Positions 5,082-38,880 of a DNA stretch of 64,000 nt are shown here, in pieces. The DNA is taken from NCBI GenBank assembly GCA_004519485.1, contig CP038107.1, positions 62,001-126,000 of the forward strand. Direction: 5' to 3'. The stretch comes from Nannochloropsis oceanica (taxonomy: Eukaryota; Sar; Eustigmatophyceae; Eustigmatales; Monodopsidaceae). The notes under the pieces were generated by a model. That model did not search any database. It was not told the DNA's origin and saw only the letters and a program-made list of their open reading frames with translations. Every line of letters starts with the position of its first letter. Position 1 is the stretch's first letter. A program made the position numbers and the translations under genes.

Positions 5082-5755
5082 TCAAACTTATGCTGGCCTG
5101 TCGGTCAGCCGCGTGACAAGGCGCATAGGCCACAAGTTATCCTCCTTAAGTCAAAGCGTTTGATTTCCATGTGACCGAGCGCAAACGAGAAACCAGGTTT
5201 TAGTTAGCCGGTTGAGCGCTGGGGTGGCCAGCAACATTGCAAACATATTATTTACTGGCTTCCTTGCTCGGCCTCCTTATTTTTGAAACTCACATGCCAT
5301 CCATCTATCGATTTGAGGCGCTGTGGACACCCAACCAAACCACCACGTTACAACCAACAGTCTCTGTATATATAAATGAGAATAAAAATGGTGGAGAAGA
5401 GCTCTGTGAGTGCTGACCGTTAGCCTAAGCAACAGAGCACCACACCGTAGCGACGGGAGGGCGACGGAGGGAGGAGCAATGGGGAAGCAGATGGTAAAGC
5501 CCCTTGTATTGCGCCTCCTCTTCCCTTCGCTACCTTTTCCCGCATACTACCCTGTCGTGACTACGAGTCTCACACCAAGCATGGCAGAAAGCACCGTTGG
5601 TCAGCCGCCTAACAAGGCGCATGTGACACAAGTGAAAGTGTTGGTCTCTCATGTGACCGAGCGCAAACGAGAAATCAGGTTTGAGCCGGTTGAACGCAGG
5701 GGGTGTCAAGCAAAACTGCAAACATATTGTTAACTGGCTTACCGGCTCGCACTGT
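5082..5755. repeat. Diverged outer copy of the array's inter-unit spacer (R1 family)
   Basis: Two R1-like segments in a row: about 5082-5395 and 5396-5755. The second matches 14759-15125 along its length (GAGAAGAGCT, ACACCAAGCATGGCAGA, CATGTGACCGAGCGCAAACG, AACATATTGTTAACTGGC), with many substitutions. The first carries the same CATGTGACCGAGCGCAAACG and CCATCCATCTATCGATTT blocks found at 14532 and 14658. Identity to the next unit becomes near perfect only from about 5709, so this is the old left edge of the tandem array. Confidence 0.7.
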
Positions 5756-6290
5756 TCTTCTTGACACTCACTTGCTACTCAAGCTCGCGAGAAAAGCGAA
5801 ACGCTTGGCCCTGTGATCACTTTTAAGCCGATATATACACCCCATCCAGTCGCAATCGCTTACTTTGCTGCAACAAGCGACCATGGGCCCCTCCAATCTC
5901 TTTTTGGCTCGCCCTACTCATTCTTCTTGGAACTCACCTGCCACTCAAGCTCGCGAGAAAGACAGGACCGCAAGGCCCCTTGCTCACTCTCGGTCACTTT
6001 GGAGATGACACGCATCCATCGAGTCGCAATCGCTCACTTTGCTACAATAAGCGACCATGAGCCCCTCCACTCTACTCGCTTCCTGTCTCGCCTTTTTCAT
6101 TCTTCTTGAAACTCACCTGCCGCTCAAGCTCGTGAGAATGACAGGACTGCTAGGCCCCTTGGCCACTCTTGGCCACTTTCAAGACGATGTACACCCGTTG
6201 GATCGCAATCGCTTACTTTGCTACAAGAACCGACCAAGCGGCACGCCAAATCATAGGCCCTTACAAGGACACTTTGGCGGTTGAATTGAA
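5756..6290. repeat. Promoter tandem repeat, unit A (three copies of about 170 bp)
   Basis: Three imperfect direct repeats upstream of gene A, beginning near 5769, 5936 and 6114. Each runs through CTCAAGCTCGYGAGAA, a GGCCCCTTG or GGCCCTGTG block, GTCGCAATCGCTYACTTTGC, a GCGACCATG or equivalent, and ends in CTCGCC..TTCTTCTTG. The array sits between the minus-strand gene's 5' side and the plus-strand start at 6485, so it may carry promoter or enhancer elements. No function is demonstrated. Confidence 0.8.
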
Positions 6291-6484
6291 TGGGGAACAA
6301 GCGTCCACCTCTCGGTTGAAATGACGCCTGCACTTATTGTTTCCATGCTCCCCATAAGCTATGTCGATGCACCCTCATAACCTCACACCACTCCACGCCT
6401 TCTCTTCCCCTTTCATGTAGACTACGCTGCAAGACGAGCAGAACAGAACACAGGGTCTCCGGCTGTCCGTATCATATCCATCCC

Positions 6485-9400
6485 ATGACTTCCGGAGCGA
6501 CCATGGGCGAGGCCGGGCCCCAAGAGGAGTCCCGATGCCGTCGCCGGCGTGTTCTACTGGGCTCGCTGGGTGCAGTGTGTCTGATCGTCGGTGCCGCGTT
6601 GGCCATAACCTTTGCTGGAAAGGGCCAGGGCAAGAATAAGCCGGAGCCGGCGGCTACCGTAGAGGGGGGCGTGTCTCCGATGGGAGACCTTCCAGGCCTT
6701 GTGAAGGATTCAGGTGAGAAAACATAAGGGGAGGACGGCAGGAAATGGAGGGTGCATACCCTGTGCGCAGAATTGATCCCCTGAGTTGACACCTCGTGCT
6801 GTTGCCTCTGCTGGTGCTGGTGGTGCTGCTCCTATGCTTCAAATTCGCATCCATTGCAACCCCTTTTTGAGTGCATTATCTTCTGTCGGCGATGACTTTC
6901 TCATGCCCCCATCGTTCTCTACTGAGCCGCTTTGATCGCATCAAAGGGCAGCTCTGACACCATCCGGGTGCATCCAGTGTATGATGCCTTTCCTCTTCTC
7001 AATCCCTCCTTTGCCCCTCCTCTCCTGATCTCCCCCCTGCACCGCTCTGATGATCAGCAGCATCACCCGCCTATCATAACGATTCAATCGTTTCTCTGAC
7101 ACTTCTCCGCTTTCCTCTTTCTCTCTCTTGCTCTACAGTGCTGTCATCCAACGCAGCCACCACCGGTGCCGCCCCGAAACCCGTTGCTACGATGGAACCC
7201 CTAGCTACGACGGTTACGCCCGCCGTCCCCACAGCGTCAAAGGCAGCGCCTGCTCAGGGCACTGGTGACCTCACATTTGCTCAGGAGCTCCTCGAAACCG
7301 GCACGGTGGGAGGCGTCACACTCGGCGCGGCACTGGGTGCTTTGCCCGGAGCTTCGACTGTGAATGGAGCCTTCAACGAATTAGCGAGCGATTTGGCCAA
7401 CCTGGCAGGCCTTCGCACTTGCTCCCCCGTGGATGGTCCTGATCTGGAGCGAATGGTGGCGGGCTCGAGCACTTGCGGCGTCATTCTCCTGACGAAGGGC
7501 TCTATGGTCCCGTACAATACAGAGAAGACGATGGTTGTGTCAACCCGCAAGATTATCGTGGGCCACCCTATTGATCTCCCCCAAATCATCACGGCCAGGA
7601 AAGTAGAGCGGGTCTTTGACGTGGTGTCGGGGGGCTCCTTGGACATTCGTTTCGTGACCATCTTCCGCGCATTCGGCTATGAACCGACAGATGAACTCCG
7701 CATCATCACCGGCGGTGTTGCGTTGGTGCGCTTGGGAGGCTTCTTCCGCGGTACGGCCGTGATTTTCCGCGACCCCACTCAGAATCTCGCCGGTTTTCAA
7801 GGCTCGCTGGCGCGCCCCTATCAGCGTCGCCGCACGTACGGCGGGCACGTCCTAGTGATGGGGGGCTCCTTCTTTTGTTACGGATGTCAGGTAATCCGGT
7901 GGGCCCCTTACGGCCTGGTTCTTTTGAACGTGTTCCAAGTTGGCCGTGATTTCTTGGTTGTTGCCGGGACGAGCGTCATGGTCGGCATGTATCATTTGTT
8001 CTTCACGCCTTTCCTCAGTGGTATCAGCGTCGGGAATGCTATCGCTGTCCTGGGCGGCGTCAGTGTTCGCATTGGTGGCGGAACAGAGGGGGTTGCGGTT
8101 CTTGTTGGACAATTTGGTAGGTCGTGCGTGTGTAAAGGAGACGAGGGGTAGTAAGGGAAGAGTGCTAAAGCACTATTAGTGGTCATGAAGGAGCAAGCAG
8201 AGAAGCCTTGGACGCACCTAACACTAACTCCCAGACGATGTACAACCCCTCCCGACCCCACCCCCACACACATGACAGGTGCGGGCCAGAATATATTTGT
8301 GGGCGGCGGGGTGCTCGTGAATGTGGGCCATCAGCAGCAGACCGCCTTTGTGTGCCTTATGCGTGCGGGCTACGGCATGACTGCTCTTGGTGCTGGGGTG
8401 TTTATTCACATTGCGGAACTTGAGAACCGTGCGTGGGGTGCGGCTGCCATCGTCGGTGCCGGGCAGGTGTACTCCAACGGCGCGGGCGTTTTCGACAAGA
8501 CTGGTGGAGAGGTCGTCAACAGTGCTATTTCGGCCTTCCAAGCCCTGGTCGGCGGGTCCGCGTACGTCAGATTTCTCTCTCCAAACCCCCTTCCTCCTGT
8601 CGTGTATCATAGTAGGCTTGAGTGTGTTTTTGTCTCGCTCAACTGTATGCATCGCCTCGTGTGTGTATTTTGTTTGTGTGATGAAACGGCTAAGGCACAA
8701 CACTCACTCCGTGTCCTCTCCTTTCTATCTTCTTCCTTTCTACCTATGATAGCTATTTTGGCACGGGCGACATGAACATTGTGGGCGAGCAATTTGCGCG
8801 ACTTGTTCTAACCCTGGACCAGAATGGCGTTGGCATGACATGGTTCAACGGAGCCGGAAGTGGGACACTGATCTTAACGCCCAGTATGGTGATTGCCCTG
8901 GTCCGTTCTCAGAAGATTCTTGGTGCCGAGGTACGTCAAGCTTTTCATGACGCAATTTACGTCTGCTTGTCTCTCATTTTTGGTGATTGACGCTTAATAT
9001 ATGCGTCCATTTCTTCCATAGATATTTCCACCAAGTGTGATCTAATTTGTCTTCATGCTCCACTTCCATTCCGTGTGTTTCACTCCCATTCCGTGTAGGT
9101 CTTTCAAGGAGCCGGCTTTTTCACAGAGGTCAACGGTACGCGGTGGACATTTCAGTTGGTGAATGCGCAAATTCCGGGGTATGAAGGCTGGATTGGGCTA
9201 GGCGCCGCCCTGCTTGTCCGCACCCGGACCACTGTCAGGCGTCTGGTGAACTACCGCGCTGGCAAGAAAGTGGCGTGGGTGGTGAATGGGGTCGGTGTCA
9301 ACGAATCGCTGCGAAACAACTTCAACATTCTCGCCACCAAGAACGGCACTCAAGCCCTCAAGCCGCAGCCTACTAAGCCTGGCAAGCACCGACTCCTGGA

Positions 9401-10946
9401 AGCTGTGGATGACCTTGTGAGCAGCGCTGTCACCAGAGCCGGCAGAGGCAAGGGCCGGGCCCTTATGAGAGGTTTTAGTCGTCCTGCTTTGAGCATGGCT
9501 GACAGTGTGATGGACTCGAAGAAGATCCAGCCTCCCAATCCCGGGATTCTGGCCGAAAAACTGCAGGCCCTGGTGTCGGGTTTGAAGAATAAACGCCGCC
9601 TCCAAGGCCAGCCCGCGGTCAACCCCACCCGTATCATGAACATGTTCAATGGCCTGTCGCCAGCCTCGCTCATGAAAGCTTGGCAAGAGGCCGTGGATGA
9701 AGCCAACAGCAGCCCAGACGATCGTGCCTTGGCTGCAGGAAACGATGCCGACGAGGTGGACGCCGACGGCCGGTGGGGCGAACAGGTGTACGTGGGCGGC
9801 GGTGATGCCTCGCAGTGTGTGCTGTGCGGGGTCGGTCCCGGGACGACCGAGTCCCACTGGAACAGGGACGCAGGCGACGACCCAGCCACCTGCCATATCA
9901 CGGAGGCATGCACTCCTGAAGATTCAGTCCAAGGCATCATGGGGAAGCTCAGAGGAGCCTTGCCGGACGGGGAAGACTTAGTAGTGCCGCCCGTGGCGAA
10001 GGGCTGGGCCAAGACGGTGGGCTCCAAGTACACGGCGCGTATCTTGCAGGATATGGACGATCACCAGGCGGAGAATCCGGGGGCGGATGTCAAGCTGCCG
10101 GACACGAACATTTTGACCTACGACATTTTCCTGTACTGCCCCGTGGCCGATGCGGAGTGTGAGTATAGCCAGGCAGACATGAAGACGGCATTCCAAGACT
10201 ATCTGGACGATGTGGCGCAGGAGGAGACTGCGTTCAGGATTTCGTCGGCGACTGCAGCGGTGCATCCGGCTATCTTCAAATCTGTCAATGATGCTGATGA
10301 AAGCTTCGTGTCGGCCATTGGGGCGCCGGCGCTAGAGGGGTGTGGGAAGGGCCTCTCGTTTTCTCTTTTCGTGACGACGCCCGACAAATCTTCGGTGACG
10401 GATGTGAAGACTATCCTGGAAAAAGCAGGTACCGACAGTGATGAACTTCTGGCCTTCATCAACGACCAAGGGGAGCAGGAAGCATCCTTCTGCAGCGTGA
10501 GCGTGACGAAGCGCTCAGCAATGTTTTTCCCGTCCGTGGACACGGCGGCAGGGAAGAGCTTCTATCAGAAGCTTTACACGGGCAACGCGCTGGATTCCGG
10601 GAGCCTCTGGCCCGACATCACGGTGGTGTCGGCGCACGAGGTGGCCCCCGTTCAGCACGCAGTGGCGGATCAGTCCTACACACTTTTGTTGGAGGGCTTT
10701 GCCATGAAGGCGGAAGTGGTGGTGGAGCTGTTCCAGGGCACGCAGAGCAGCGGGGTGGAGGTGGCCAGGGTCCCTGGTGGCATGGGCATCGGCGAGACAC
10801 GCGAGGTGGCTTGGACGGCTCCTGCGCCCATGAATGGGGACGGTGGGAATCGGGCTTACGTGCGCGCCTACCACGTTGGGATGCCGGGCATCTTTGCACA
10901 GAGCGAGGTCTTTGATCTCTTGCCCTTGTCTGTGCTGGATGACTAA
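6485..10946 (+). CDS. Type II membrane protein with Thr/Pro stalk, probable beta-helix and Kre9/KNH-like C-domain (copy A)
   Basis: Five exons: 6485-6713, 7139-8116, 8279-8561, 8753-8930, 9099-10946. All introns are GT-AG and all phases match, giving 1,171 aa. Residues 1-22 are cytosolic with an Arg cluster (CRRRR). Residues 23-44 are one membrane helix (VLLGSLGAVCLIVGAALAI), so the bulk faces the lumen or outside. Residues about 77-125 form a Thr/Pro/Ala stalk. Residues about 170-560 are repeated short Gly/Val/Phe strands spaced about 25-32 residues (GHVLVMGGSFFCYG, NIFVGGGVLVNVG, ALGAGVFIHIAEL), as in a right-handed beta-helix. A Cys-rich stretch lies near 790-820 (CVLCGVG, TCHITEAC). The last about 100 residues (VVVELFQG, VAWTAPAP, AYVRAYH, AQSEVFDLL) match the strand pattern of Kre9/KNH1 or Ser/Thr-rich GPI-type domains. 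The last two domain calls are inferences. This copy has Gly at residue 8 where B-D have Asn. The likely role is cell surface or wall; no enzyme motif is visible. Confidence 0.85.
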
Positions 10947-12419
10947 GCTCCCTGCGAAGCATTTCACACCGTGGAGGCGCGACAGTCCGACAGTCGTAAG
11001 GGGTGGAGGAATGAGAAGAGGATGGGAAAAGAGGGAGGCGTAATGAAAAAGAGTACTATGAGGCATTTCCAGGCATACATTTACGATTGATGTGTCCTTG
11101 CGCGAGGAGGAGGAGGGAAAGACAAAACCACCGACCTAGAAGGAGTAGATGAAGATGGGACGACTGAGGAATGGGAATAGAGAGAGAAAACTCAGCAGGA
11201 AGAGCGCAGCAGAGATCATGAGACAGATAGACAGGAAGCGCATATGAGGGCGAGAAGAGAGTGAGGGTCCAGGAAGAGGAGTGGAGACAAGGACGATGGA
11301 GGGACGGAAGAGCGAGCAATGACGGGTCTCTGGGGGTGGGATTGCTTGATTGATATATGTATGTATATTCATATGTATGAGAGATGCGAAAGCAGATAGA
11401 AGACGGATGTTATACAACGTTGAAACCATTTCCCCTTGTGGGGAGTGGTTTGGATGAGCAAAGGTCCTCTTGATGCCCCCCTAAGAGGTGTGGACTTGGA
11501 AGGGAAAGTGCATGTACGCTGCTCCAACCACATAGTCAAAATCGAGATATTTAATTGTTTTAAAACCCTTTACCCCTAAGTACAATACGGCGACGGTGTG
11601 CAATAAAAATGAAAGCAGCAGTTTAATCTTGGTTGGAAGGGTAGTCAACCCGAAAGTACAATTGTCATGGGGGCCTGTCAAATACATAGAAAATAAGAGA
11701 TAGGACTATTGCACAGACGCCTCTGCAAATCAACGACAAACGATTGCAAAATAAAGTAAACTGCACGTGATTTTTATGATCACATCTTGTTGCTTGCTTC
11801 GGAAAATATCCACAGGAATGTGGTAGAGGTGTTGCTTCCCTCGTTCTTAGTGTCGCTCGACGGCCACTTTATTGTAGGGCAAGGCCTCCATATCTAGCTG
11901 TCGAAGTAGTCTTTACGGCATATCCGCCATCCCTTTTGACACAAATGCCTGCAAGCCTATCACTCAAAATATCCAAAATAGAAAAAGGAAAAAGATCAGT
12001 CCCCGCTAAGCGCATGTGCATAAAATATAAGCTATACTTGCGCACATGCCCATGCATGATTGCCAATTCATTACAAGGCTACGAGTCGATCCAAAAACCT
12101 GTGTAGTGAAGGAACGTCAACAAAGCTGATTGGTCGTTTACGATCCACAAGTCTCGTTTGTTTGACTAAGAACGCCACCTAGAAGCATGCCGCTTGTAGC
12201 AGCCAATAAGCGAGGATAATAGCTCAGCACTTCGGTCTACCTCCAAATAGCATTATTCAATCTTTACACACGTTATTTCTTCCTTCTTTATCACAAAACG
12301 CTTGTGGATTTCGATCACCGGTAACAGAATTGTCAATAAACCTTTCTCGCATCCCGCCTTAGCCCTTCCCCCTGTCTCCCCTTTTATGTCCTGTCGCTTC
12401 CCTCGGTTCTCCTTCTTCT
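10947..12419. other. Convergent 3' spacer of unit A
   Basis: 1.47 kb between the stop codons of the two convergent genes. It starts purine-rich (GAGGAGGAGG), turns AT-rich after about 11340, and includes a TATGTATGTATATTCATATGTATG stretch at about 11356-11379 and an imperfect CATGTGCATAAAATATAAG / CGCACATG hairpin region near 12013-12050. Small open frames (for example 11869-12066 minus) lack support. The same spacer recurs at 20320-21792 and 29305-30777. Confidence 0.6.
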
Positions 12420-14219
12420 TTACTGGTCGCCCATGGAAGCCCCGACTCCGAAGAGCATGCTGGGATCCGTGAGCACCCTATGTAATGGTTGTGTAGAAAT
12501 ACAAAGTAAGTGCCTGTGCTGCTTGCCTTTTTCTCCCTTCCCCTTCTCTGCTTTTCTCTCTTTGAACGTACTTTTTCACAAGAGGGTCGTCGCCCGTGAT
12601 GAGGTCGAAGAACGCCGGATCCTCGTCCATGGTGATTTGGCGGAGCTGCTCGACGATGTCCGGTACTTTGCCCTTGAGCTCCGAGAGATCGATAGCTGGG
12701 CGGGGGTTAGAGAGTGGGGAAGAAAAGGGTGAATCATTGAGAGAGAAACTTTGTCATCCAGAGTGACGAAATTTAGTCACCCAGCAGAAATGACGCTTGA
12801 TATTGATTAGAAAAAAGCCGTGGCTATCGCAAGGAAGGTGTGATGGGGGGAAAAACTAGACGAGGCGGGGAGTGGTTGTTGGAGTGGAGTATCACGTAGA
12901 AAGTTGACTGAGACCAGACATTTCAGAGAAAGAATAGCAAAGGACATTCATCCGCAAGCATGTAGCCTTCCCACAACTCATTTCATCGCATACGAAAGCC
13001 CCCAGGAACAGCTATACAGAATGAAAGAGGTCACGTAGTTGAGGATAAACGCCCCATTCACACACCCACATATTGCGAAAAGTATCGTGTGCTTACCTCC
13101 ATTCCACAAGCTGTCGGCCACGTTGTCTTGAAGTTCATCGACGGCGGCAGAGTCGCCATTCTGTGGGTGGGGTACACGTTAAATTCATATGAGAAATGTC
13201 AGCCGAGGGATAAGGAACGCAATGAAGGGATGACGTATCGCCACACAAAGACAGAAACATACCTCGACGCGGGCGACAAGCTCAGTCATGCGCCGTTCCT
13301 CCGTCGTCAAGGCCCGGTGGGTGCCATCAGCCTGCAGAGTGCTGGGCTGCATTGAGTTCGCGACCTTCTGCATGGTTTCGGCTAGAGCGACGGGGTTCGC
13401 CATGTCTTTCATGCCCTTGATGGCCGTCGCCACAAACTTGCGATAGGTCTCAAGGATGGCCATGCTCTATAATTTCGATGAAGTGCGTATGTGATGGAAT
13501 GAGAAAGACGTGATGTCAGGGATGGAGGCAAAGGAAAAAAGGAAGCACATACGAAAAGCGTGCATTTGATCTTCTCCAAGGGAAGGATACAAGAGCTGCT
13601 TGATTCTCTCCCTTTTTGAAGAGAAGGACGCCGAGGGTCTGTGGAGGGGAAGGAATGCATACTTTTCTTAGATTCGCTTTCTCTTGTAATACGTACATCT
13701 GTTTTCGTGAAGTCCTCTTTGGCCTTGGCTCTCAAGGCCTTCACGCCGGGTAACACATTGAACAAGGGTGTGGCTGCAGGAAGAGGATGGAAGAGGGAGG
13801 AAGGGCGGGCGGGCGCAGGGAAACGGGGAAAATGCTGAGTGACGAGCGACAGGTCGTTGCCTTTTCATCTGTTCCATGAGCACAGTCTCTCCCTCTGTCT
13901 TACCTTGCAACATCGCGTAAGTGGTGTCCGGATCACTGAAAATCTCTTTCACCTCATTGCCCAAGCTCATGTCAACGACTAGGTTGGCGTGATCGCCATT
14001 CATAAGGCGTTTGGCGCTCTTGAGGATGGGATCAGTGGCCCACGAGTCTTGTATTTCATGGTCGCTGATAAAGGCCTTTGCTGTCGCCGCCGTGGTCGTG
14101 GTGTCTCCCTGAAGCATGCGCTTGACACGATTCAAGGGGCCACCGTTCTTGTCCGAGGCCTGGCCCATGGCAGTGGCGACCACGAGCACGGCGGCGAGGC
14201 GAAGACCAAGAAAGCGCAT
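12420..14219 (-). CDS. Small secreted protein of unknown function (copy A)
   Basis: Seven exons on the minus strand: 14219-13904, 13773-13697, 13638-13553, 13464-13263, 13160-13097, 12695-12572, 12477-12420. All splice sites are GT-AG and the phases join without conflict, giving 308 aa. The start MRFLG begins a clear signal peptide (RLAAVLVVATAMGQAS, cut near residue 22). The mature protein is soluble, mixed alpha, rich in Met, Asp and Lys, and has no membrane helix and almost no Cys. Two segments, SDPDTTYAMLQATPLFNVLP and GDDPLVKKVLTDPSMLFG, have the spacing of STI1-type DP motifs, which is only a weak hint. Exon 3 is read in the frame that satisfies both phases; an acceptor at ATAGAG joins exon 4. 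It is convergent with the surface-protein gene and head-to-head with the next unit, which suggests co-amplification. No known family is recognised. Confidence 0.75.
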
Positions 14220-14279
14220 ATTTTGGGGAAAGGAATACAACGTGTGTGTTGCTGTCTATGTAGATGAGAGTAGAGAACG

Positions 14280-14645
14280 GAGGAGAAGAGCTTTGTGAGT
14301 GCTGATGAGTAGCCCGAGCAATAGAGCACCATACCGTAGCGACGGAAGGGTGAGCAAGGGGGAAAGGCCACAGGTAAAGTTCCTTGTATTGCGCCTCCTC
14401 TTCCCCTTGCTACCTATTTTCGCCGTCGAGCCTGTCGTGACTACGTGTCTCACACCAAGCATGGCAGAGGGCACTGTTGGCCAGCCGCGTGACGGGGCGC
14501 ATGCGACACAAGTCAAAGCGTTGGACTCTCATGTGACCGAGCGCAAACGAGAAACCAGGTTTTTGAATCGGTTGAGTGCAGTGGGCAACCAGCAAAACTG
14601 CTGAGGACAGTATTTACTGGCTTTCTGGCTCCCCCTGTTCTTCTT
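14280..14645. repeat. R1 repeat at the 5' side of the secreted-protein gene (unit A)
   Basis: About 365 bp beginning GGAGGAGAAGAGCTTTGTGAG, immediately upstream of the minus-strand gene, ending near CCCCCTGTTCTTCTTG. It is repeated almost perfectly at 14759-15125 (5' two-thirds), 23653-24018 and 32638-33003, and in diverged form at 5396-5755. Its place suggests promoter and 5' UTR of the minus-strand gene. Confidence 0.8.
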
Positions 14646-15128
14646 GTAGCTCACAGGCCATCCATCTATCGATTTTAGGTCTCTTGAACAACCAACCAAA
14701 ACAAACTGCAACCACCAGTTTTTGTTTATGTAGATTAGAGCTCTTTTCTTAAAAAATGGAGGAGAAGAGCTTTGTGAGTGCTGATGAGTAGCCCGAGCAA
14801 TAGAGCACCATACCGTAGCGACGGAAGGGTGAGCAAGGGGGAAAGGCCACAGGTAAAGTTCCTTGTATTGCGCCTCCTCTTCCCCTTGCTACCTATTTTC
14901 GCCGTCGAGCCTGTCGTGACTACGTGTCTCACACCAAGCATGGCAGAGGGCACTGTTGGCCAGCCGCCTAACAAGGCGCATGCGCCATAACATATGCTCC
15001 TTGAGGGAAAGCGTCGGTCTCTCATGTGACCGAGCGCAAACGAGAAACCAGGTTTGAGCCGGTTGAGTGCAGAAGGCTACCAGCAAAACTGCAAACATAT
15101 TGTTAACTGGCTTACCGGCTCGCACTGT
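14646..15128. repeat. Extra R1 copy in the A/B junction
   Basis: A linker with CCATCCATCTATCGATTTTAG and an AT-rich stretch (about 14646-14758) is followed by a second R1 copy (14759-15125). The first about 215 bp of this copy repeat 14280 onward nearly base for base; it then switches to a variant with GCCTAACAAGGCGCATGC and AACATATTGTTAACTGGC that matches the array's left edge at 5608-5755. The B/C and C/D junctions lack this second copy, so their head-to-head spacers are shorter. Confidence 0.8.
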
Positions 15129-15663
15129 TCTTCTTGACACTCACTTGCTACTCAAGCTCGCGAGAAAAGCGAAACGCTTGGCCCTGTGATCACTTTTAAG
15201 CCGATATATACACCCCATCCAGTCGCAATCGCTTACTTTGCTGCAACAAGCGACCATGGGCCCCTCCAATCTCTTTTTGGCTCGCCCTACTCATTCTTCT
15301 TGGAACTCACCTGCCACTCAAGCTCGCGAGAAAGACAGGACCGCAAGGCCCCTTGCTCACTCTCGGTCACTTTGAAGATGACACGCATCCATCGAGTCGC
15401 AATCGCTCACTTTGCTACAATAAGCGACCATGAGCCCCTCCACTCTACTCGCTTCCTGTCTCGCCTTTTTCATTCTTCTTGAAACTCACCTGCCGCTCAA
15501 GCTCGTGAGAATGACAGGACTGCTAGGCCCCTTGGCCACTCTTGGCCACTTTCAAGACGATGTACACCCGTTGGATCGCAATCGCTTACTTTGCTACAAG
15601 AACCGACCAAGCGGCACGCCAAATCATAGGCCCTTACAAGGACACTTTGGCGGTTGAATTGAA
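15129..15663. repeat. Promoter tandem repeat, unit B (three copies)
   Basis: Same three imperfect about 170-bp direct repeats as at 5756-6290, offset by 9,373 bases, differing at isolated positions (for example TTTGAAGATG here against TTTGGAGATG in A). Confidence 0.8.
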
Positions 15664-15857
15664 TGGGGAACAAGCGTCCACCTCTCGGTTGAAATGACGC
15701 CTGCACTTATTGTTTCCATGCTCCCCATAAGCTATGTCGATGCACCCTCATAACCTCACACCACTCCTCGCCTTCTCTTCCCCTTTCATATAGACTTAGT
15801 TGCAAGACGAGCAGAACAGAACACAGGGTCTCCGGCTGTCCGTATCATATCCATCCC

Positions 15858-23592: not shown

Positions 23593-23652
23593 ATTTTGGG
23601 GAAAGGAATACAACGTGTGTGTTGCTGTCTATGTAGATGAGAGTAGAGAACG

Positions 23653-24018: not shown

Positions 24019-24400
24019 GAATCCACATGCTACCTACGCCAGAAAGACTGATAAAAAGCGATTGCTTGGCCCTGTGATCACTCGGCCCTTTTAAAGCTGA
24101 TTAGACACTTGTCGAATCGCAATCGCTCACTTTGCTGCAACATGCGACCAAGCGACATGCCAAACTATGGGCCCCTCGACTCTTCTCGCTTCCTGGCTCG
24201 CCCTGTTCTTCTTGGAACTCACGTGCCACTAAAGCTCGCGAGAAAAACAAATAGCGACCGCTAGGCGTCTTGCTTTCTTTTGGCCACTTTTGAAGCTGAA
24301 AGACATTTGTTGAACCGCATCGCTCACTTGACCGCAACGAGTTACCAAGCGGCACGCCAAATCATCGGTCCCCACCGAGGCATACGGGCGGTTGAGTTGA
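24019..24400. repeat. Promoter tandem repeat, unit C (about two copies, diverged)
   Basis: Same repeat family as 5756-6290 (AATCGCTCACTTTGCTGCAA, ACTAAAGCTCGCGAGAAA, GGCACGCCAAATCAT), but only about two copies and with many substitutions relative to A/B. One full repeat is therefore missing relative to A and B. Confidence 0.75.
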
Positions 24401-24617
24401 ATGGGAAGCAAGCGTCCACCGCCCGCTTGAAATGAAGTCTGTGATTGTTGGTCAGCCTCTTAAGAGCATTCCATGCTCCGCCTAAGCTATGGCCGTTCAC
24501 ATCCACACTATCACTCTCACACCACCCCTCGCCTTCCCTCCCCCTTTCCTGTAGACTTAGGTGCAAGACGAGCAGAACAGAACACAGGGTCCCAGCTGTC
24601 CGTATCATTTCCGTCCC

Positions 24618-29304: not shown

Positions 29305-30777
29305 GCTCCCTGCGAAGCATTTCACACCGTGGAGGCGCGACAGTCCGACAGTCGTAAGGGGTGGAGGAATGAGAAGAGGATGGGAAAAGAGGGAGGCGTA
29401 ATGAAAAAGAGTACTATGAGGCATTTCCAGGCATACATTTACGATTGATGTGTCCTTGCGCGAGGAGGAGGAGGGAAAGACAAAACCACCGACCTAGAAG
29501 GAGTAGATGAAGATGGGACGACTGAGGAATGGGAATAGAGAGAGAGAACTCAGCAGGAAGAGCGCAGCAGAGATCATGAGACAGATAGACAGGAAGCGCA
29601 TATGAGGGCGAGAAGAGAGTGAGGGTCCAGGAAGAGGAGTGGAGACAAGGACGATGGAGGGACGGAAGAGCGAGCAATGACGGGTCTCTGGGGGTGGGAT
29701 TGCTTGATTGATATATGTATGTATATTCATATGTATGAGAGATGCGAAAGCAGATAGAAGACGGATGTTATACAACGTTGAAACCATTTCCCCTTGTGGG
29801 GAGTGGTTTGGATGAGCAAAGGTCCTCTTGATGCCCCCCTAAGAGGTGTGGACTTGGAAGGGAAAGTGCATGTACGCTGCTCCAACCACATAGTCAAAAT
29901 CGAGATATTTAATTGTTTTAAAACCCTTTACCCCTAAGTACAATACGGCGACGGTGTGCAATAAAAATGAAAGCAGCAGTTTAATCTTGGTTGGAAGGGT
30001 AGTCAACCCGAAAGTACAATTGTCATGGGGGCCTGTCAAATACATAGAAAATAAGAGATAGGACTATTGCACAGACGCCTCTGCAAATCAACGACAAACG
30101 ATTGCAAAATAAAGTAAACTGCACGTGATTTTTATGATCACATCTTGTTGCTTGCTTCGGAAAATATCCACAGGAATGTGGTAGAGGTGTTGCTTCCCTT
30201 GTTCTTAGTGTCGCTCGACGGCCACTTTATTGTAGGACAAGGCCTCCATATCTAGCCGTCGAAGTAGTCTTTACGGCATATCCGCCATCCCTTTTGACAC
30301 AGATGCCTGCAAGCCTATCACTCAAAATATCCAAAATAGAAAAAGGAAAAAGATCAGTCCCCGCTAAGCGCATGTGCATAAAATATAAGCTATACTTGCG
30401 CACATGCCCATGCATGATTGCCAATTCATTACAAGGCTACGAGTCGATCCAAAAACCTGTGTAGTGAAGGAACGTCAACAAAGCTGATTGGTCGTTTACG
30501 ATCCACAAGTCTCGTTTGTTTGACTAAGAACGCCACCTAGAAGCATGCCGCTTGTAGCAGCCAATAAGCGAGGATAATAGCTCAGCACTTCGGTCTACCT
30601 CCAAATAGCATTATTCAATCTTTACACACGTTATTTCTTCCTTCTTTATCACAAAACGCTTGTGGATTTCGATCACCGGTAACAGAATTGTCAATAAACC
30701 TTTCTCGCATCCCGCCTTAGCCCTTCCCCCTGTCTCCCCTTTTATGTCCTGTCGCTTCCCTCGGTTCTCCTTCTTCT
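29305..30777. other. Convergent 3' spacer of unit C
   Basis: Same as the spacers of A and B, with isolated differences. No gene supported. Confidence 0.6.
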
Positions 30778-32577
30778 TTACTGGTCGCCCATGGAAGCCC
30801 CGACTCCGAAGAGCATGCTGGGATCCGTGAGCACCCTATGTAATGGTTGTGTAGAAATACAAAGTAAGTGCCTGTGCTGCTTGCCTTTTTCTCCCTTCCC
30901 CTTCTCTGCTTTTCTCTCTTTGAACGTACTTTTTCACAAGAGGGTCGTCGCCCGTGATGAGGTCGAAGAACGCCGGATCCTCGTCCATGGTGATTTGGCG
31001 GAGCTGCTCGACGATGTCCGGTACTTTGCCCTTGAGCTCCGAGAGATCGATAGCTGGGCGGGGGTTAGAGAGTGGGGAAGAAAAGGGTGAATCATTGAGA
31101 GAGAAACTTTGTCATCCAGAGTGACGAAATTTAGTCACCCAGCAGAAATGACGCTTGATATTGATTAGAACAAAGCCGTGGCTATCGCAAGGAAGGTGTG
31201 ATGGGGGGAAAAACTAGACGAGGCGGGGAGTGGTTGTTGGAGTGGAGTATCACGTAGAAAGTTGACTGAGACCAGACATTTCAGAGAAAGAATAGCAAAG
31301 GACATTCATCCGCAAGCATGTAGCCTTCCCACAACTCATTTCATCGCATACGAAAGCCCCCAGGAATAGCTATACAGAATGAAAGAGGTCACGTAGGTGA
31401 GGATAAACGCCCCATTCACACACCCACATATTGCGAAAAGTATCGTGTGCTTACCTCCATTCCACAAGCTGTCGGCCACGTTGTCTTGAAGTTCATCGAC
31501 GGCGGCAGAGTCGCCATTCTGTGGGTGGGGTACACGTTAAATTCATATGAGAAATGTCAGCCGAGGGATAAGGAACGCAATGAAGGGATGACGTATCGCC
31601 ACACAAAGACAGAAACATACCTCGACGCGGGCGACAAGCTCAGTCATGCGCCGTTCCTCCGTCGTCAAGGCCCGGTGGGTGCCATCAGCCTGCAGAGTGC
31701 TGGGCTGCATTGAGTTCGCGACCTTCTGCATGGTTTCGGCTAGAGCGACGGGGTTCGCCATGTCTTTCATGCCCTTGATGGCCGTCGCCACAAACTTGCG
31801 ATAGGTCTCAAGGATGGCCATGCTCTATAATTTCGATGAAGTGCGTATGTGATGGAATGAGAAAGACGTGATGTCAGGGATGGAGGCAAAGGAAAAAAGG
31901 AAGCACATACGAAAAGCGAGCATTTGATCTTCTCCAAGGGAAGGATACAAGAGCTGCTTGATTCTCTCCCTTTTTGAAGAGAAGGACGCCGAGGGTCTGT
32001 GGAGGGGAAGGAATGCATACTTTTCTTAGATTCGCTTTCTCTTGTAATACGTACATCTGTTTTCGTGAAGTCCTCTTTGGCCTTGGCTCTCAAGGCCTTC
32101 ACGCCGGGTAACACATTGAACAAGGGTGTGGCTGCAGGAAGAGGATGGAAGAGGGAGGAAGGGCGGGCGGGCGCAGGGAAACGGGGAAAATGCTGAGTGA
32201 CGAGCCACAGGTCGTTGCCTTTTCGTCTGTTCCATGAGCACAGTCTCTCCCTCTGTCTTACCTTGCAACATCGCGTAAGTGGTGTCCGGATCACTGAAAA
32301 TCTCTTTCACCTCATTGCCCAAGCTCATGTCAACGACTAGGTTGGCGTGATCGCCATTCATAAGGCGTTTGGCGCTCTTGAGGATGGGATCAGTGGCCCA
32401 CGAGTCTTGTATTTCATGGTCGCTGATAAAGGCCTTTGCTGTCGCCGCCGTGGTCGTGGTGTCTCCCTGAAGCATGCGCTTGACACGATTCAAGGGGCCA
32501 CCGTTCTTGTCCGAGGCCTGGCCCATGGCAGTGGCGACCACGAGCACGGCGGCGAGGCGAAGACCAAGAAAGCGCAT
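30778..32577 (-). CDS. Small secreted protein of unknown function (copy C)
   Basis: Seven exons at copy B positions plus 8,985: 32577-32262, 32131-32055, 31996-31911, 31822-31621, 31518-31455, 31053-30930, 30835-30778. It encodes the same 308-aa signal-peptide protein. The one exonic change I saw (GCA to GCT in exon 3) is silent; other changes fall in introns. The gene is intact. It is the last copy; unit D has none. Confidence 0.75.
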
Positions 32578-32637
32578 ATTTTGGGGAAAGGAATACAACG
32601 TGTGTGTTGCTGTCTATGTAGATGAGAGTAGAGAACG

Positions 32638-33003
32638 GAGGAGAAGAGCTTTGTGAGTGCTGATGAGTAGCCCGAGCAATAGAGCACCATACCGTAGCGA
32701 CGGAAGGGTGAGCAAGGGGGAAAGGCCACAGGTAAAGTTCCTTGTATTGCGCCTCCTCTTCCCCTTGCTACCTATTTTCGCCGTCGAGCCTGTCGTGACT
32801 ACGTGTCTCACACCAAGCATGGCAGAGGGCACTGTTGGCCAGCCGCGTGACGGGGCGCATGCGACACAAGTCAAAGCGTTGGACTCTCATGTGACCGAGC
32901 GCAAACGAGAAACCAGGTTTTTGAATCGGTTGAGTGCAGTGGGCAACCAGCAAAACTGCTGAGGACAGTATTTACTGGCTTTCTGGCTCCCCCTGTTCTT
33001 CTT
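32638..33003. repeat. R1 repeat, C/D junction
   Basis: Third near-identical single R1 copy upstream of the minus-strand gene, followed directly by the unit D promoter repeats. Confidence 0.8.
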
Positions 33004-33385
33004 GAATCCACATGCTTCCTACGCCAGAAAGACTGATAAAAAGCGATTGCTTGGCCCTGTGATCACTCGGCCCTTTTAAAGCTGATTAGACGCTTGTCGA
33101 ATCGCAATCGCTCACTTTGCTGCAACATGCGACCAAGAGACATGCCAAACTATGGGCCCCTCGACTCTACTCGCTTCCTGGCTCGCCCTGTTCTTCTTGA
33201 AACTCACGTGCCACTAAAGCTCGCGAGAAAAACAAATAGCGACCGCTAGGCGTCTTGCTTTCTTTTGGCCACTTTTGAAGCTGAAAGACATTTGTTGAAC
33301 CGCATCGCTCACTTGACCGCAACGAGTTACCAAGCGGCACGCCAAATCATCGGTCCCCACCGAGGCATACGGGCGGTTGAGTTGA
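33004..33385. repeat. Promoter tandem repeat, unit D (about two copies)
   Basis: Nearly identical to 24019-24400 in unit C; about two copies of the promoter repeat rather than three. Confidence 0.75.
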
Positions 33386-33602
33386 ATGGGAAGCAAGCGT
33401 CCACCGCCCGCTTGAAATGAAGTCTGTGATTGTTGGTCGGCCTCTTAAGAGCATTCCATGCTCCGCGTAAGCTATGGCCGTTCACATCCACACTATCACT
33501 CTCACACCTCTCCTCGCCTTCCCTCCCCCTTTCCTGTAGACTAAGGTGCAAGACGAGCAGAACAGAACACAGGGTCCCAGCTGTCCGTATCATTTCCGTC
33601 CC

Positions 33603-36600
33603 ATGACTTCCGGAGCGACCATGAACGAGGCCGGGCCCCAAGAGGAGTCCCGACGCCGTCGCCGGCGTGTTCTACTGGGCTCGCTGGGTGCAGTGTGTCT
33701 GATCGTCGGTGCCGCGTTGGCCATAACCTTTGCTGGAAAGGGCCAGGGCAAGAATAAGCCGGAGCCGGCGGCCACTGTAGAGGGGAATTTGTCTCCGATG
33801 GGAGACCTTCCAGGCCTTGTGAAGGATTCAGGTGAGAAAACATAAGGGGAGGACGGCAGGAAATGGAGGGTGCACACCCTGTGCGCAGAACTGACCCCCT
33901 GAGTTGACCTCTTGGAGCTCTAGTGGTGGTAGTGCTGGTGGTGCTGCCCGTACTATCTGAATTGTGTACAATGTCGAGCCCCCTCATTGAATGTATCTTC
34001 TTATGCCTTCGACGAACGTATCTTGTGTCCCTGCCATTCTCTTCTTGGCCGCTTTAATCGCATCAAGGGGCAGCTCCGACACCTCCGGTGCACCGATTCT
34101 TTGCCGGCTTTGCTTCCCTAACTCGCTCCTTTTGCCCTCTCCTTTTCCCCCTCTTGCACCGCTCTGATGATCAGCAGCATTACCCCTTACCATAACGATT
34201 CAATCGTTTCTCTGACACATCTCCGTTTCCCACCTCCCTCTCTCCTGCGCTACAGTGCTGTCAACCAACGCGGGCACCACCGGTGCCGCTCCGAAATCCG
34301 TAGGTACGACGGTGACGCCCGCTGTCCCCACAGCATCGAAGGCAGCGCCTGCTGAGGGTACTGGCGACCTCACGTTTCAGAACTTCCTCGAAACCGGCAC
34401 GGTGGGAGGCGTTGGCCTCGGCGCGGCACTGGGTGCTTTGCCCGGGGCCTCGACCGTGAATGGAGCCTTCAACGGCTTGGCGAGTAATTTGGCCAACCTG
34501 GCAGGCCTTCGTGTCTGCTCTCCCGTGGATGGTCCTGATCTGGAGCGAATGGTGGCGGGCTCGAGCACTTGCGGCGTCATTCTCCTGACGAAGGGCTCTA
34601 TGGTCCCATACTTCACGGAGAACACGATGGTTGTGTCAACCCGCAAGATTATCGTGGGCCACCCTATTGACCTTCCTCAAATTAGGACGGTAGGGAAACT
34701 AGAGCGGGTCTTTGACGTGGTGTCGGGGGGCTCCTTGGACATTCGTTTCGTGAGCGTCTTCAAAGCATACGGCCGAGCACCCTCAGAGGACCTCCGTATC
34801 GTCGCCGGGGGTGTTGCGTTGGTGCGCTTGGGAGGCTTCTTCCGCGGTACGGCCGTGATTTTCCGCGAGCCTACTCAGACTTTCAAAGCCTTTCAAGGCG
34901 CGCTGGAGCGCCCCTATCAGCGTCGCCGCAAGTATGGCGGGCACGTCCTGGTCTTGGGAGGCTCCTTCTTTTGTTACGGATGTCAGATAATCCGGTGGAA
35001 CCCTTATGGCGGGATTCTTTTGAACGTTTTCCAGCTTGGTCGTGATTTCTTGGTTGTTGCCGGGACGAGCGTCATGACTGGCGTCTATCATTTGGCCTTC
35101 ACACCTTTCGGAAGCGCAGTCAGCGTTGGAAATGCTATCGCTGTCCTGGGCGGCGTCAGTGTTCGCATTGGCGGCGGAACAGAGGGGGTTGCGATTCTCA
35201 AGGGACAATTTGGTAGGTCGTGCGTGGGTGAAGGAGACGAGGGATAGAAGGGGAACAGTAGCAAAAAGGCATTCAATAGCATCATGACAGGTCATCATTG
35301 GCGAAGTAGGAAAGCCTTGGACGCACGAAAGCCTTGGACGCACCTAACACTCATCCCCAACCAAAATACACACACGAACATAATCATACTCGCGCACGAC
35401 AGGTGCCGGCCAGAATATATTCGTGGGCGGTGGGGTGCTCGTGAATGTGGGCCATCAGCAGCAGACCGCCTTTGTGTGCCTTGTGCGTGCGGGCTACGGC
35501 ATGACTGCTATGGGTGCTGGGGTGTTTGTACTTATTGCGGAGCTTGAGAACCGTGCGTGGGGTGTGGCTTCCATCTTCGGTGCCGGGCAGGTGTACTCCA
35601 ACGGCGCGGGCGTTATGGACAAGACTGGTGGAGAGGTCGTCAACAGTGCTATTTCGGCCTTCCAAGCCCTGGCCGGCGGGTCCGCGTACGTCAGATTTCT
35701 CTCTCTATACCCCGTTCCTTCTCTCATGTTTCATTGCTTACAGAGGAGACTAGAGTGTGTTTTTGTCTTGCTGAAATATATGCAATACCTTTTGGGGGTT
35801 GTGTGACAGGAAGCGGCCAAGGTACAGCACTCACTCCATCCATATTTTTTTCCTCCTTCTATTTCTCCCACCCATGATAGCTATTTGGGCGCGGGTGACA
35901 TGAACATTGTGGGCGAACAGTTTGCGCGACTTGCTTTAACCCTGGACCAGAATGGCGTTGGCATGACTTTCTTTAACGGGGCTGGGCACGGAACTATGAT
36001 CTACGTCCCCAGTTTGGTGATTTGCCTCGTCCGTTCTCAGAAGATTCTCGGTGCCGAGGTACGTCTGGCTATGCGAGATGCGAATTCCGTCTGTCCGTTT
36101 CGCGTTTTTGATGATCGATGTGTCTGTCGGTCCCTCTCCTCTGATTCTAATTTTGGTTTTTGTCCTTGTCCTCGTATGTATTGTTTCGCCTCTCTGTGTT
36201 TCCTGTATCGATTGTGTTTGTGCCCGCAACCTACCTGTCTCTGCACTCATCCACGGACTCTTAACTGAGTGCTCTCGCGGGACTGAACCCTGGTAGTTGA
36301 AGGGCTTGTCTGTAATCTGTCGGCGTTTTTTCCTCACACACACACACTCTCCCTATCGCTTTCTTCGATGAATATGCCCCCCCATGAAGTGTGGTCTCAT
36401 ATATCTCTTTGATGTCTCACTCCAACTTGTTTAGGTCTTCCAAGGAGCCGGGTTTCACACAGAAGTCAACAATACACGCTGGACAATTCAATTGGTGAAT
36501 GCGCAAATGCCGGGTTATGAAGGCTGGATCGGGCTGGGTGCCTCTCTGATGATCCGGTCGCGGACCACTGTCAGGCGTCTGGTGAACTACCGCGCTGCCA

Positions 36601-38288
36601 AGAAAGTGGCTTGGGTGGTGAATGGGGTCGGTGTCAACGAATCGCTGAGGAGCAACTTCAACATTTTTACCGACAAGAACGGCACGACAGTCCTGAAGCC
36701 GCACGCTAAAAATGGCAAGCACCGACTCCTGAAAGCTGTGGATGAACTTGTGAGCAGTGCTGCCAGCACATCCAACAGGCGGGCCCTTATTAAAGGTTTT
36801 AGTCGTCCTGCTTTGAGCATGGCCGACAGTGTGATGGACTCGAAGAAGGTTCAGCCTCCTAACCCCGGGATTCTGGCCGAAAAACTGCAGGCCCTGGTGT
36901 CGGGTTTGAAGAATAAACGCCGTCTCAAAGGGCAAGCCGCGGTCAACCCCACCCGTATCATGAACATGTTCCAAGGCCTGTCGCCAGCCTCGCTCATGAA
37001 AGCTTGGCAAGAGGCCGTGGACGAGACTAACAACAACAATGCTCTCGGTAGCAACACCAACGATCGTGCCTTGGCTGCAGGAAACGATGCCGACGAGGTG
37101 GACGCCGACGGCCGGTGGGGCGAACAGGTGTACGTGGGCGGCGGTGATGCCTCGCAGTGTGTGCTGTGCGGGGTCGGTCCCGGGACGACCGAGTCCCACT
37201 GGAACAGGGACGCAGGCGACGACCCAGCCACCTGCCATATCACGGAGGCATGCACTCCTGCAGATTCAGTCCAAGGCATCATGGGGAAGCTCAGAGGAGC
37301 CTTGCCGGATGGGGAAGACTTAGTATTGTCGCCCGCGGCGAAGGGCTGGGCCAAGACGGTGGGCTCCAAGTACACGGCGCGTCTCTTGCAAGATATCGAC
37401 GATCACCAGGCGGAGAATCCCGGGGCGGATATCAAGCTGCCGGACACGAACATTTTGACCTACGACATTTTCCTGTACTGCCCCGTGGCCGATGCGGAGT
37501 GTGAGTATAGCCAGGCAAACATGAAGGCGGCATTCCAAGACTATCTCGACGATGTGGCGCAGGAGGAGACTGCGTTCAAGATTTCGTCGGCGACTGCAGC
37601 GGTGCATCCGGCTATCTCTAAAATTGTGAATGATGCTGATGAAAGCTTCGTGTCGGCCATTGGGGCGCCGGCGCTAGAGGGGTGTGGGAAGGGCCTCTCG
37701 TTTTCTCTTTTCGTGACGGCGCCCGACAAATCTTCGGTGACGGATGTGAAGACTATCCTGGAAAAAGCAGGTACCGACAGTGATGAACTTCTGGCCTTCA
37801 TCAACGACCAAGGGGAGCAGGAAGCATCCTTCTGCAGCGTGAGCGTGACGAAGCGCTCAGCAATGTTTTTCCCGTCCGTGGACACGGCGGCAGGGAAGAG
37901 CTTCTATCAGAAGCTTTACACGGGCAACGCGCTGGATTCCGGGAGCCTCTGGCCCGACATCACGGTGGTGTCGGCGCACGAGGTGGCCCCCGTTCAGCAC
38001 GCAGTGGCGGATCAGTCCTACACACTTTTGTTGGAGGGCTTTGCCATGAAGGCGGAAGTGGTGGTGGAGCTGTTCCAGGGCACGCAGAGCAGCGGGGTGG
38101 AGGTGGCCAGGGTCCCTGGTGGCATGGGCATCGGCGAGACACGCGAGGTGGCTTGGACGGCTCCTGCGCCCATGAATGGGGACGGTGGGAATCGGGCTTA
38201 CGTGCGCGCCTACCACGTTGGGATGCCGGGCATCTTTGCACAGAGCGAGGTCTTTGATCTCTTGCCCTTGTCTGTGCTGGATGACTAA
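33603..38288 (+). CDS. Type II membrane surface protein with beta-helix and Kre9/KNH-like domain (copy D)
   Basis: Exons 33603-33831, 34256-35212, 35403-35685, 35881-36058, 36435-38288; 1,166 aa. It is nearly identical to copy C, with at least two charge changes: Gln to Glu in the beta-helix (LERPYQ) and Glu to Lys in exon 5 (LLKAVDE). The basic cluster reads SRRRRRR as in B, whereas C reads SRCRRRR as in A. The frame is intact. Its 3' flank stops matching the other units at 38880, and no secreted-protein gene follows. Confidence 0.85.
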
Positions 38289-38880
38289 GCTCCCTGCGAA
38301 GCATTTCACACCGTGGAGGCGCGACAGTCCGACAGTCGTAAGGGGTGGAGGAATGAGAAGAGGATGGGAAAAGAGGGAGGCGTAATGAAAAAGAGTACTA
38401 TGAGGCATTTCCAGGCATACATTTACGATTGATGTGTCCTTGCGCGAGGAGGAGGAGGGAAAGACAAAACCACCGACCTAGAAGGAGTAGATGAAGATGG
38501 GACGACTGAGGAATGGGAATAGAGAGAGAAAACTCAGCAGGAAGAGCGCAGCAGAGATCATGAGACAGATAGACAGGAAGCGCATATGAGGGCGAGAAGA
38601 GAGTGAGGGTCCAGGAAGAGGAGTGGAGACAAGGACGATGGAGGGACGGAAGAGCGAGCAATGACGGGTCTCTGGGGGTGGGATTGCTTGATTGATATAT
38701 GTATGTATATTCATATGTATGAGAGATGCGAAAGCAGATAGAAGACGGATGTTATACAACGTTGAAACCATTTCCCCTTGTGGGGAGTGGTTTGGATGAG
38801 CAAAGGTCCTCTTGATGCCCCCCTAAGAGGTGTGGACTTGGAAGGGAAAGTGCATGTACGCTGCTCCAACCACATAGTCA

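What the first reader, a model, noticed from the sequence alone, without database searches (positions are those of the whole stretch)
5709..38880. Tandem amplification of a surface-protein / secreted-protein gene pair
Three complete units and one partial unit of about 9 kb each keep every reading frame, splice site and phase intact: four copies of a large type II surface protein and three of a 308-aa secreted protein. Duplicates that stay open in such low-divergence copies suggest a gene-dosage benefit or ongoing expansion. Neither protein matches a family I can name, and the two are always convergent within a unit and head-to-head between units. This is the strongest candidate for an undescribed system here. 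The link between the two products is an inference.
Basis: partly seen in the sequence, partly recalled or inferred. Interest (0 to 1): 0.85.

Follow-up and report, generated by a model that had tools for sequence, protein, structure and literature searches.

The report
Amplified surface-protein gene pair in alga
A single-celled marine alga carries side-by-side copies of a gene pair, a large membrane-anchored surface-type protein and a small secreted protein, and the same back-to-back pair recurs elsewhere in its genome, which suggests that the two undescribed proteins work together.

Summary
The array is real in this assembly: four copies of gene A (five exons, 1171/1166 aa, apparent type II anchor) and three of gene B (signal-like start), all frames and splice sites intact. 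The genome is very probably Nannochloropsis oceanica. A belongs to a family with at least 32 matched places on 18 contigs; no convincing Pfam or PDB match was found for either protein. The conserved unit is not the convergent A-B unit but the divergent, head-to-head B-A pair: 7 of 7 confidently detected B genes, at five loci, lie head-to-head with an A gene, although proteins at different loci are only about 20-52% alike. A genes from these five loci form one clade, 100/100 (17 of 32 places). The array is a mosaic: two A isoforms (119 of 1160 residues differ, dN/dS 0.41) with a homogenised A 3' end and identical B proteins. B is more likely 280 aa than 308. Best reading: B is a dedicated secreted partner of a surface beta-solenoid protein; function is inferred, and exact copy number needs read-level proof.

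The parts
5148..38881 (.). Tandem array: one A without its B, then three complete head-to-head B-A pairs
   Evidence: self-blastn, block identity
6485..10946 (+). A1: 5 exons, 1171 aa, isoform alpha; no B directly upstream
   Evidence: gene model
12420..14219 (-). B1: protein with signal-like start; 280 aa (6 exons) preferred, 308 aa (7 exons) also open
   Evidence: gene models
14220..15857 (.). B1-A2 divergent intergenic region, 1638 bp
15858..20319 (+). A2: isoform alpha, 2 aa different from A1
21793..23592 (-). B2, protein identical to B1
23593..24617 (.). B2-A3 divergent intergenic region, 1025 bp
24618..29304 (+). A3: isoform beta, 1166 aa
30778..32577 (-). B3, protein identical to B1
32578..33602 (.). 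B3-A4 divergent intergenic region, 1025 bp
33603..38288 (+). A4: isoform beta, 3 aa different from A3
5364..5763 (.). Probable relic of the 5' flank of a lost B0 (80% to 14252-14646, which begins 33 bp before the B1 start codon)
   Evidence: blastn
3323..3403 (+). Probable relic of B exon 5 (81 bp, 81% to 13111-13191, inverted), left of the array
   Evidence: blastn E 1.8e-11; protein profile only E 0.41
38967..39278 (.). Diverged copy (84%) of the A-B intergenic stretch, right of the array end
   Evidence: blastn

Best explanation
The array is a tandemly amplified, partly homogenised locus of a two-gene module: a divergently transcribed pair of B (small protein with a signal-like start) and A (apparent type II membrane protein with a Gly-rich repeat region of 30-residue period, probably a beta-solenoid, and a Cys-containing C-terminal region). 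A is one of a large paralogous family. Most likely A is carried through the secretory pathway with its large domain outside the cytoplasm and ends at the cell surface or wall, B enters the same compartment and binds A's exterior domain as a dedicated subunit or assembly partner, and the shared intergenic region keeps their expression matched. Unequal crossing-over and conversion multiplied the locus, kept one B sequence and one A C-terminus, and left two A isoforms. Shown: gene structures, mosaic, paralogous family, head-to-head linkage of diverged copies. Inferred: surface location, beta-solenoid fold, physical binding, shared promoter, role in the wall or surface.
For: Intact gene models. 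7 of 7 B copies found with confidence, at 5 loci, are head-to-head with an A gene: C10 x3, C16, C4, C20, C3; protein identity between these loci is low (A repeat region 33-52%, A C-terminal region 20-43%; B 22-32% for the three read in full), so the linkage is old. In the stretches in hand the only ORF matches between loci (50 aa or more, E 1e-4) are A, B and their antisense shadows (C20 was held almost only over A, and window rows at 15.3-38.9 kb were not printed). A genes from the five B-bearing loci are one side of a branch, 100/100. Start-to-start gaps 693, 1025, 1025, 1026, 1638 bp (5 of 7 pairs). Weak B-like exons also lie divergent from A-family genes at C17, C21 and C19. Gly columns repeat with a 30-residue period, autocorrelation 0.49. 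Cys at A1 positions 171, 189, 326, 796, 799, 821, 827 is kept in 13-16 of the 15-17 rows that cover them, which fits an exterior domain. Hydrophobic segment at about 22-45 after an Arg-rich start in A, and at the N-terminus of B.
Against: No expression, localisation or binding data. Block duplication can carry a pair along without functional need, so the five loci are not independent. Of the nine A copies at these loci two, A1 and the first C3 copy, have no B upstream; of the 32 A-family places 25 have none found with confidence. AlphaFold models of single exons failed (mean pLDDT 28.1 and 32.4), so the fold is unproven. The B-like exon at C10:596981 (86% to the C17 one) has no A-family match nearby. 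A possible A-B fusion at C6 did not pass a profile search (E 13).
Confidence: 0.5

Rival explanations
1. A is a Golgi-type, type II membrane enzyme that modifies wall or secreted polysaccharides (many such enzymes have a short cytosolic tail, one anchor, a stem, and some have a beta-helix), with B as its luminal cofactor.
For: Short Arg-rich N-terminus, one strong hydrophobic segment, Ala/Gly/Thr/Pro-rich stretch 47-165; possible beta-helix. The type II enzyme layout is recalled, not from a call.
Against: No invariant Asp, Glu or His in the repeat-region columns of the rows from the five B-bearing loci (columns with at least 5 of 6 rows; conserved Arg and Lys exist), and the 10 invariant columns of an 11-row family alignment, partial rows included, are all Gly; no enzyme family in Pfam or PDB profile searches.
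Confidence: 0.2
2. A and B are neighbours only by history: one ancestral neighbourhood was copied as a block several times and a compact genome keeps neighbours; the proteins have unrelated jobs.
For: Tandem and dispersed duplication is frequent in this family; the A genes of the B-bearing loci descend from one node.
Against: Deep divergence with the pair kept while other ORFs in the stretches in hand do not match; weak B-like exons beside members outside the clade.
Confidence: 0.25
3. Assembly artefact: fewer units exist and repeated reads were laid out as an array.
For: Mean read length 4.3 kb against units of about 9 kb (PMC6610115, passages); 4651-bp identical run between units 1 and 2.
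Against: Two A isoforms, unit-specific differences, a duplicated stretch before A2 and relics beside the array cannot all come from one unit; at least one alpha and one beta unit should exist. C3 shows the same A-B-A order with similar but not identical A copies.
Confidence: 0.1

Closest known systems
Right-handed beta-helix / pectate-lyase-like adhesins and enzymes (Pfam Pectate_lyase_5, Chlamydia Pmp passengers)
   Same: Long Gly-rich region of regularly spaced repeats; suggestive only. The Pmp comparison rests on the start of one abstract (PMC11166332, search listing) and recall; no Pmp sequence was compared.
   Different: No convincing Pfam or PDB match (Pectate_lyase_5 E 0.32 in 1 of 11 members; PDB 0 hits at E 10); apparent type II anchor; 30-residue period.
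Head-to-head (bidirectional-promoter) gene pairs
   Same: Divergent starts 0.7-1.6 kb apart in the 5 of 7 pairs measured, kept through duplication. Definition seen in the starts of abstracts of PMC7817982 and PMC3024869 (listing).
   Different: 4 of the 5 measured gaps exceed the 1 kb named in PMC7817982, and that limit concerns transcription starts, which are unknown here; co-expression untested; multiplied as a module.
Kre9/KNH-like Ig-like domain (Pfam PF10342)
   Same: Weak hit in the C-terminal region of 1 of 9 members, E 0.0078.
   Different: One member only; none for the window protein.
Tandem arrays of paralogous genes with gene conversion
   Same: Near-identical adjacent units, a homogenised tract and a diverged tract.
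   Different: The homogenised tract spans the A 3' end plus a second, unrelated gene; dN/dS 0.41 between the A isoforms, no sign of diversifying selection overall.

Membership tests
Right-handed beta-helix (pectate-lyase-like) superfamily | Sequence match to a known family or solved structure | tested here: not met
   Pfam best relevant E 0.32 in 1 of 11; PDB 0 hits at E 10 with the profile
Right-handed beta-helix (pectate-lyase-like) superfamily | Regular coil repeats | tested here: met
   30-residue Gly period, autocorrelation 0.49, second peak 0.37 at 60
Right-handed beta-helix (pectate-lyase-like) superfamily | Three-dimensional parallel beta-helix | tested here: inconclusive
   AlphaFold on exon 2 and exon 5 alone: mean pLDDT 28.1 and 32.4; no fold search was run
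Beta-helix polysaccharide lyase, hydrolase or epimerase | Conserved catalytic acidic or basic residues | tested here: not met
   Repeat-region residues invariant in the rows from the B-bearing loci include Arg and Lys but no Asp, Glu or His; family-invariant columns all Gly. A lyase using Arg or Lys alone is not excluded.
Head-to-head gene pair | Divergent adjacent starts | tested here: met
   7 of 7 confident B copies; gaps measured for 5 of 7
Head-to-head gene pair | Co-expression from a shared promoter | not testable with these tools
   no transcript data at hand
Tandem array with concerted evolution | Homogenised tract between paralogous units | tested here: met
   mostly 71-94% in the A 5' part against 98-100% for the A 3' end and B
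Type II membrane protein | One N-terminal anchor with positive residues before it | tested here: inconclusive
   Hydropathy only: best 19-residue windows start at 22-27, after RCRRRR; topology not measured

The most novel reading that the evidence does not exclude
A and B form an undescribed two-component surface system of eustigmatophyte algae: B-type secreted partners are ancestral to the whole solenoid family, sit head-to-head with many members (also C17, C19 and C21, where only weak exon matches are seen) and are fused to the membrane protein in one member (C6, not supported by the profile test), so that the alga displays a repertoire of matched solenoid-partner complexes that expands by tandem duplication and conversion.
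Probability: 0.2. Interest if true: 0.75.

Novelty: new variant of a known kind. Interest (0 to 1): 0.5.

Why it matters
Nannochloropsis oceanica is a biotechnology alga with a recalcitrant wall polymer whose assembly is still being worked out (PMC11211512, passages seen). A family with at least 32 places in a genome of 7,330 annotated genes (PMC6610115, passages), without a named domain and in part with a linked secreted partner, is a concrete set of candidates for wall or surface assembly, and the pair can be tested by knock-out and pull-down in laboratory strains. It also shows how an alga reported to have lost meiosis (same paper) keeps two isoforms of one protein while holding its partner constant.

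Tried and rejected
Fusion of A and B at C6 (L056, tail of 206 aa): the B profile gives E 13. Local alignment z is 3.1 against B1 (6 of 400 shuffles as high) but 0.71 (102 of 400) and -0.45 (268 of 400) against the other two; end-free alignment 3.1, 0.85 and 0.27. The tail has no other convincing homologue in the genome (one hit, E 3.19). Kept as a lead only.

B outside the five loci: the 24-aa C22 hit (E 0.085) was taken as chance. The B-like exon at C17 (profile E 0.014 among ORFs of 19 fetched loci) was followed: as a query it had 4 non-self hits, 2 of them (C21 E 9.4e-4, C19 E 0.156) within 5 kb upstream and divergent of A-family genes, 2 (C10:596981 at 86%, C10:243073 E 0.61) not. Under uniform placement 2 or more of 4 has probability about 4e-5, but the query was chosen after looking, so this is only suggestive.

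Relatives elsewhere: viral contigs gave none for the B alignment (61 pattern matches, 0 confirmed) or A exon 2 (6 matches, 0); prokaryote genomes gave none for A exon 5 (16 matches, 0). No eukaryote proteomes were available, so distribution in other algae is untested. The phage, plasmid and E. coli collections and the PADLOC library were not searched.

Structure: two AlphaFold jobs on single exons, each on an alignment of the four window copies, failed, so no fold search was run.

Chance-level hits set aside: PHBC_N E 0.057 for A1; three PDB chains E 0.66-7.6 for A1; one PDB chain E 0.82 for the B alignment; the remaining weak Pfam, NCBIfam and PHROGs rows.

Literature: the listings (12 of 1,979 papers shown; 10 of 2,533; 10 of 76; 15 of 235; 10 of 76; 1 of 1, PMC3886936, not opened) showed no title or abstract start naming this family or pair. 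These are capped lists from an open-access library, so absence from print is not shown. The red-body proteome of N. oceanica (PMC11211512, passages) lists 20 proteins in a supplement that could not be opened, so whether A or B is among them is unknown. PMC8780095 and PMC8570151 were seen by passages and did not mention it there.
Full report
What is there. The window holds a tandem array from about 5.1 to 38.9 kb. It contains four copies of gene A on the plus strand (A1 6485-10946, A2 15858-20319, A3 24618-29304, A4 33603-38288) and three of gene B on the minus strand (12420-14219, 21793-23592, 30778-32577). Every A copy has five exons and GT-AG introns; the proteins have 1171 or 1166 residues and one terminal stop; all three B copies are open.

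Source. The tool places the window at G000:C10:62001-126000 in an assembly of 29,264,788 bases in 32 contigs. Its contig C1 has 1,670,642 bases, exactly the length of the largest pseudochromosome of the N. oceanica assembly in PMC6610115, which reports 29,303,273 bases in 32 pseudochromosomes (passages seen). The totals differ by about 38 kb, so the source is very probably, not certainly, that genome. The paper reports PacBio reads of 4.3 kb mean length from a library size-selected near 20 kb, short for a 9-kb repeat: the longest identical run between units 1 and 2 is 4651 bp. The existence of two different unit types is safe; the exact number is not.

Mosaic. Units 1 and 2 are nearly identical, and so are units 3 and 4, apart from the upstream ends. 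Between the two groups the upstream region and A up to mid exon 5 are mostly 71-94% identical per 250-column block (one block with 80 aligned bases falls to 36%); two blocks are at 95-97%; from about 10.3 kb the 3' end of A, the intergenic stretch and B are 98-100% identical. A1 and A3 differ at 119 of 1160 aligned residues, A1/A2 at 2 and A3/A4 at 3, and the three B proteins are identical. In residues 1-960 dN is 0.076 and dS 0.184 (ratio 0.41; 0.28-0.62 in sub-regions): the isoforms have been kept under constraint, without a sign of positive selection overall. Probable relics show turnover at the edges: the 5' flank of a lost B0 at 5364-5763, a piece of B exon 5 at 3323-3403 (blastn E 1.8e-11, protein profile only E 0.41), and a diverged copy of the A-B intergenic stretch at 38967-39278. 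Profile scans of 8 kb to the left and of the rest of the window plus 4 kb to the right found no further A or B gene.

Gene model of B. Comparison with homologues at C16 and C4 favours 280 rather than 308 residues. If the small third exon is left out and the exon starting at 13466 is used, the frame stays open in all three copies and the match to B_C4 rises from 67.0 to 81.3 bits and to B_C16 from 43.1 to 58.2 bits. Both models remain possible without transcripts.

The A family. A search of the own genome with A1 and two with paralogues found 32 distinct places on 18 contigs, counting the four array copies and counting fragments as places (my tally over: 23, 6 and 3 new places; the tool calls such counts lower bounds). 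Several are in tandem: C3 (two), C16 at 836-847 kb (three), C18 (two), C6 at 1300-1311 kb (two). Members read over most of their length share an N-terminal hydrophobic segment (by eye), a long Gly-rich region and a C-terminal region with conserved Cys. In the long region Gly columns recur every 30 residues (autocorrelation 0.49 at lag 30, 0.37 at 60). Cys at A1 positions 171, 189, 326, 796, 799, 821 and 827 is kept in 13-16 of the 15-17 rows that cover them. This looks like a beta-solenoid, but the searches gave nothing convincing: Pfam for A, B and family alignments (best relevant rows Kre9_KNH E 0.0078 in 1 of 9 C-terminal pieces and Pectate_lyase_5 E 0.32 in 1 of 11 repeat-region pieces), PDB, NCBIfam and PHROGs for the repeat region only. 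AlphaFold on single exons gave useless models.

The B partner. Searches with B1, B_C4 and B_C16 found B genes at five loci: three copies in the array and one each at C16, C4, C20 and C3. All seven lie head-to-head with an A gene. Of the nine A copies at these five loci, seven have B directly upstream; A1 and the first C3 copy do not (the C3 B lies between the two A copies, convergent to the first and divergent from the second, as in the array). The sequences at C16 and C4 were read and modelled; of the C3 gene one exon was read; C20 rests on coordinates. The three B proteins read in full are 22-32% identical between loci, A repeat regions 33-52%, and in the stretches in hand no other ORF of 50 aa or more matches between loci apart from antisense shadows (for C20 hardly more than the A gene was held). 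The introns support homology: B1 and B_C4 both break after the aligned Asp 131, and all three models break in phase 1 before the IDL motif (my reading of the models).

Tree. In a tree of the repeat region of 17 of the 32 places (A2 and A4 left out as near copies, 13 not fetched or not used) the six rows from the B-bearing loci, A1, A3, C16, C4, C20 and the first C3 copy, form one side of a branch with 100/100 support (the program flags C6 as a long branch and C8b for letter make-up). So the pair was either formed once or its B is recognisable only there. The second option has weak support: a B-like exon (profile E 0.014) lies divergent from the C17 member, and that exon as a query hits C21 (E 9.4e-4) and C19 (E 0.156), each within 5 kb upstream and divergent of A-family genes outside the clade, but also C10:596981 at 86%, where no A was found, and C10:243073 (E 0.61). 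Against a wider pairing stand that C10 locus, the failed C6 fusion test and the many A members with no B found.

How it probably works. The conserved module is a divergent pair. Its parts seem to enter the secretory pathway: B by an N-terminal signal-like segment, A by a type II anchor (hydropathy only). I infer that B binds A outside the cytoplasm and that the shared intergenic region (0.7-1.6 kb in the 5 of 7 pairs measured) matches their expression. A surface or wall role is the most likely one for a repeat-rich, Cys-bearing exterior domain without conserved acidic residues in the repeats, but no call tests it. An enzyme with a cofactor, or neighbours by history, are the main rivals.

Compared with what is known. 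Tandem arrays with conversion and head-to-head pairs are known kinds. What seems new is the pair of families and their joint multiplication. The capped listings showed no paper naming them; that is a look at titles and abstract starts in an open-access library, not proof of absence.

Noticed in passing
window 43989-44162: A beta-carbonic-anhydrase-like gene (name recalled from its sequence, not from a call) carries a 93-bp tandem duplication of an exon; the first copy runs into a TGA right after the shared ...LLEH.
   Followed up: no
window 5837-6236 and 15210-15609: A 179-bp tandem repeat (2.3 copies) upstream of A1 and A2, not reported for A3 and A4: the two isoforms may differ in regulation.
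   Followed up: no
window 5168-5297, 5631-5797, 14515-14654, 15004-15170, 23888-24033, 32873-33005: A repeated element of about 150 bp in every B-A intergenic region and before A1; as a query it hits only this array in the whole genome (10 matches, four of them short).
   Followed up: partly
L056:1506-2123 (-), C6: One A-family member ends in a 206-aa tail that resembles B by eye; statistics do not support homology.
   Followed up: yes
L023, C10:370249 (+): An A-family member with a very long acidic Asp/Glu repeat tail in an open frame of 1809 aa.
   Followed up: no
G000:C10:596981-597151: An exon 86% identical to the B-like exon at C17, with no A-family match nearby.
   Followed up: no
G000:C3:1511145-1525892: Second tandem A-B-A locus: the two A copies score differently at the N-terminal end but identically at the C-terminal end, which hints at the same kind of mosaic as in the window.
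   Followed up: no
window 48545-49360, 56118-58082, 61629-62783: Ordinary neighbours on the minus strand: SelR domain, FHA plus RING finger, dehydrogenase E1 component; the other four of seven ORFs scanned had no Pfam match.
   Followed up: yes
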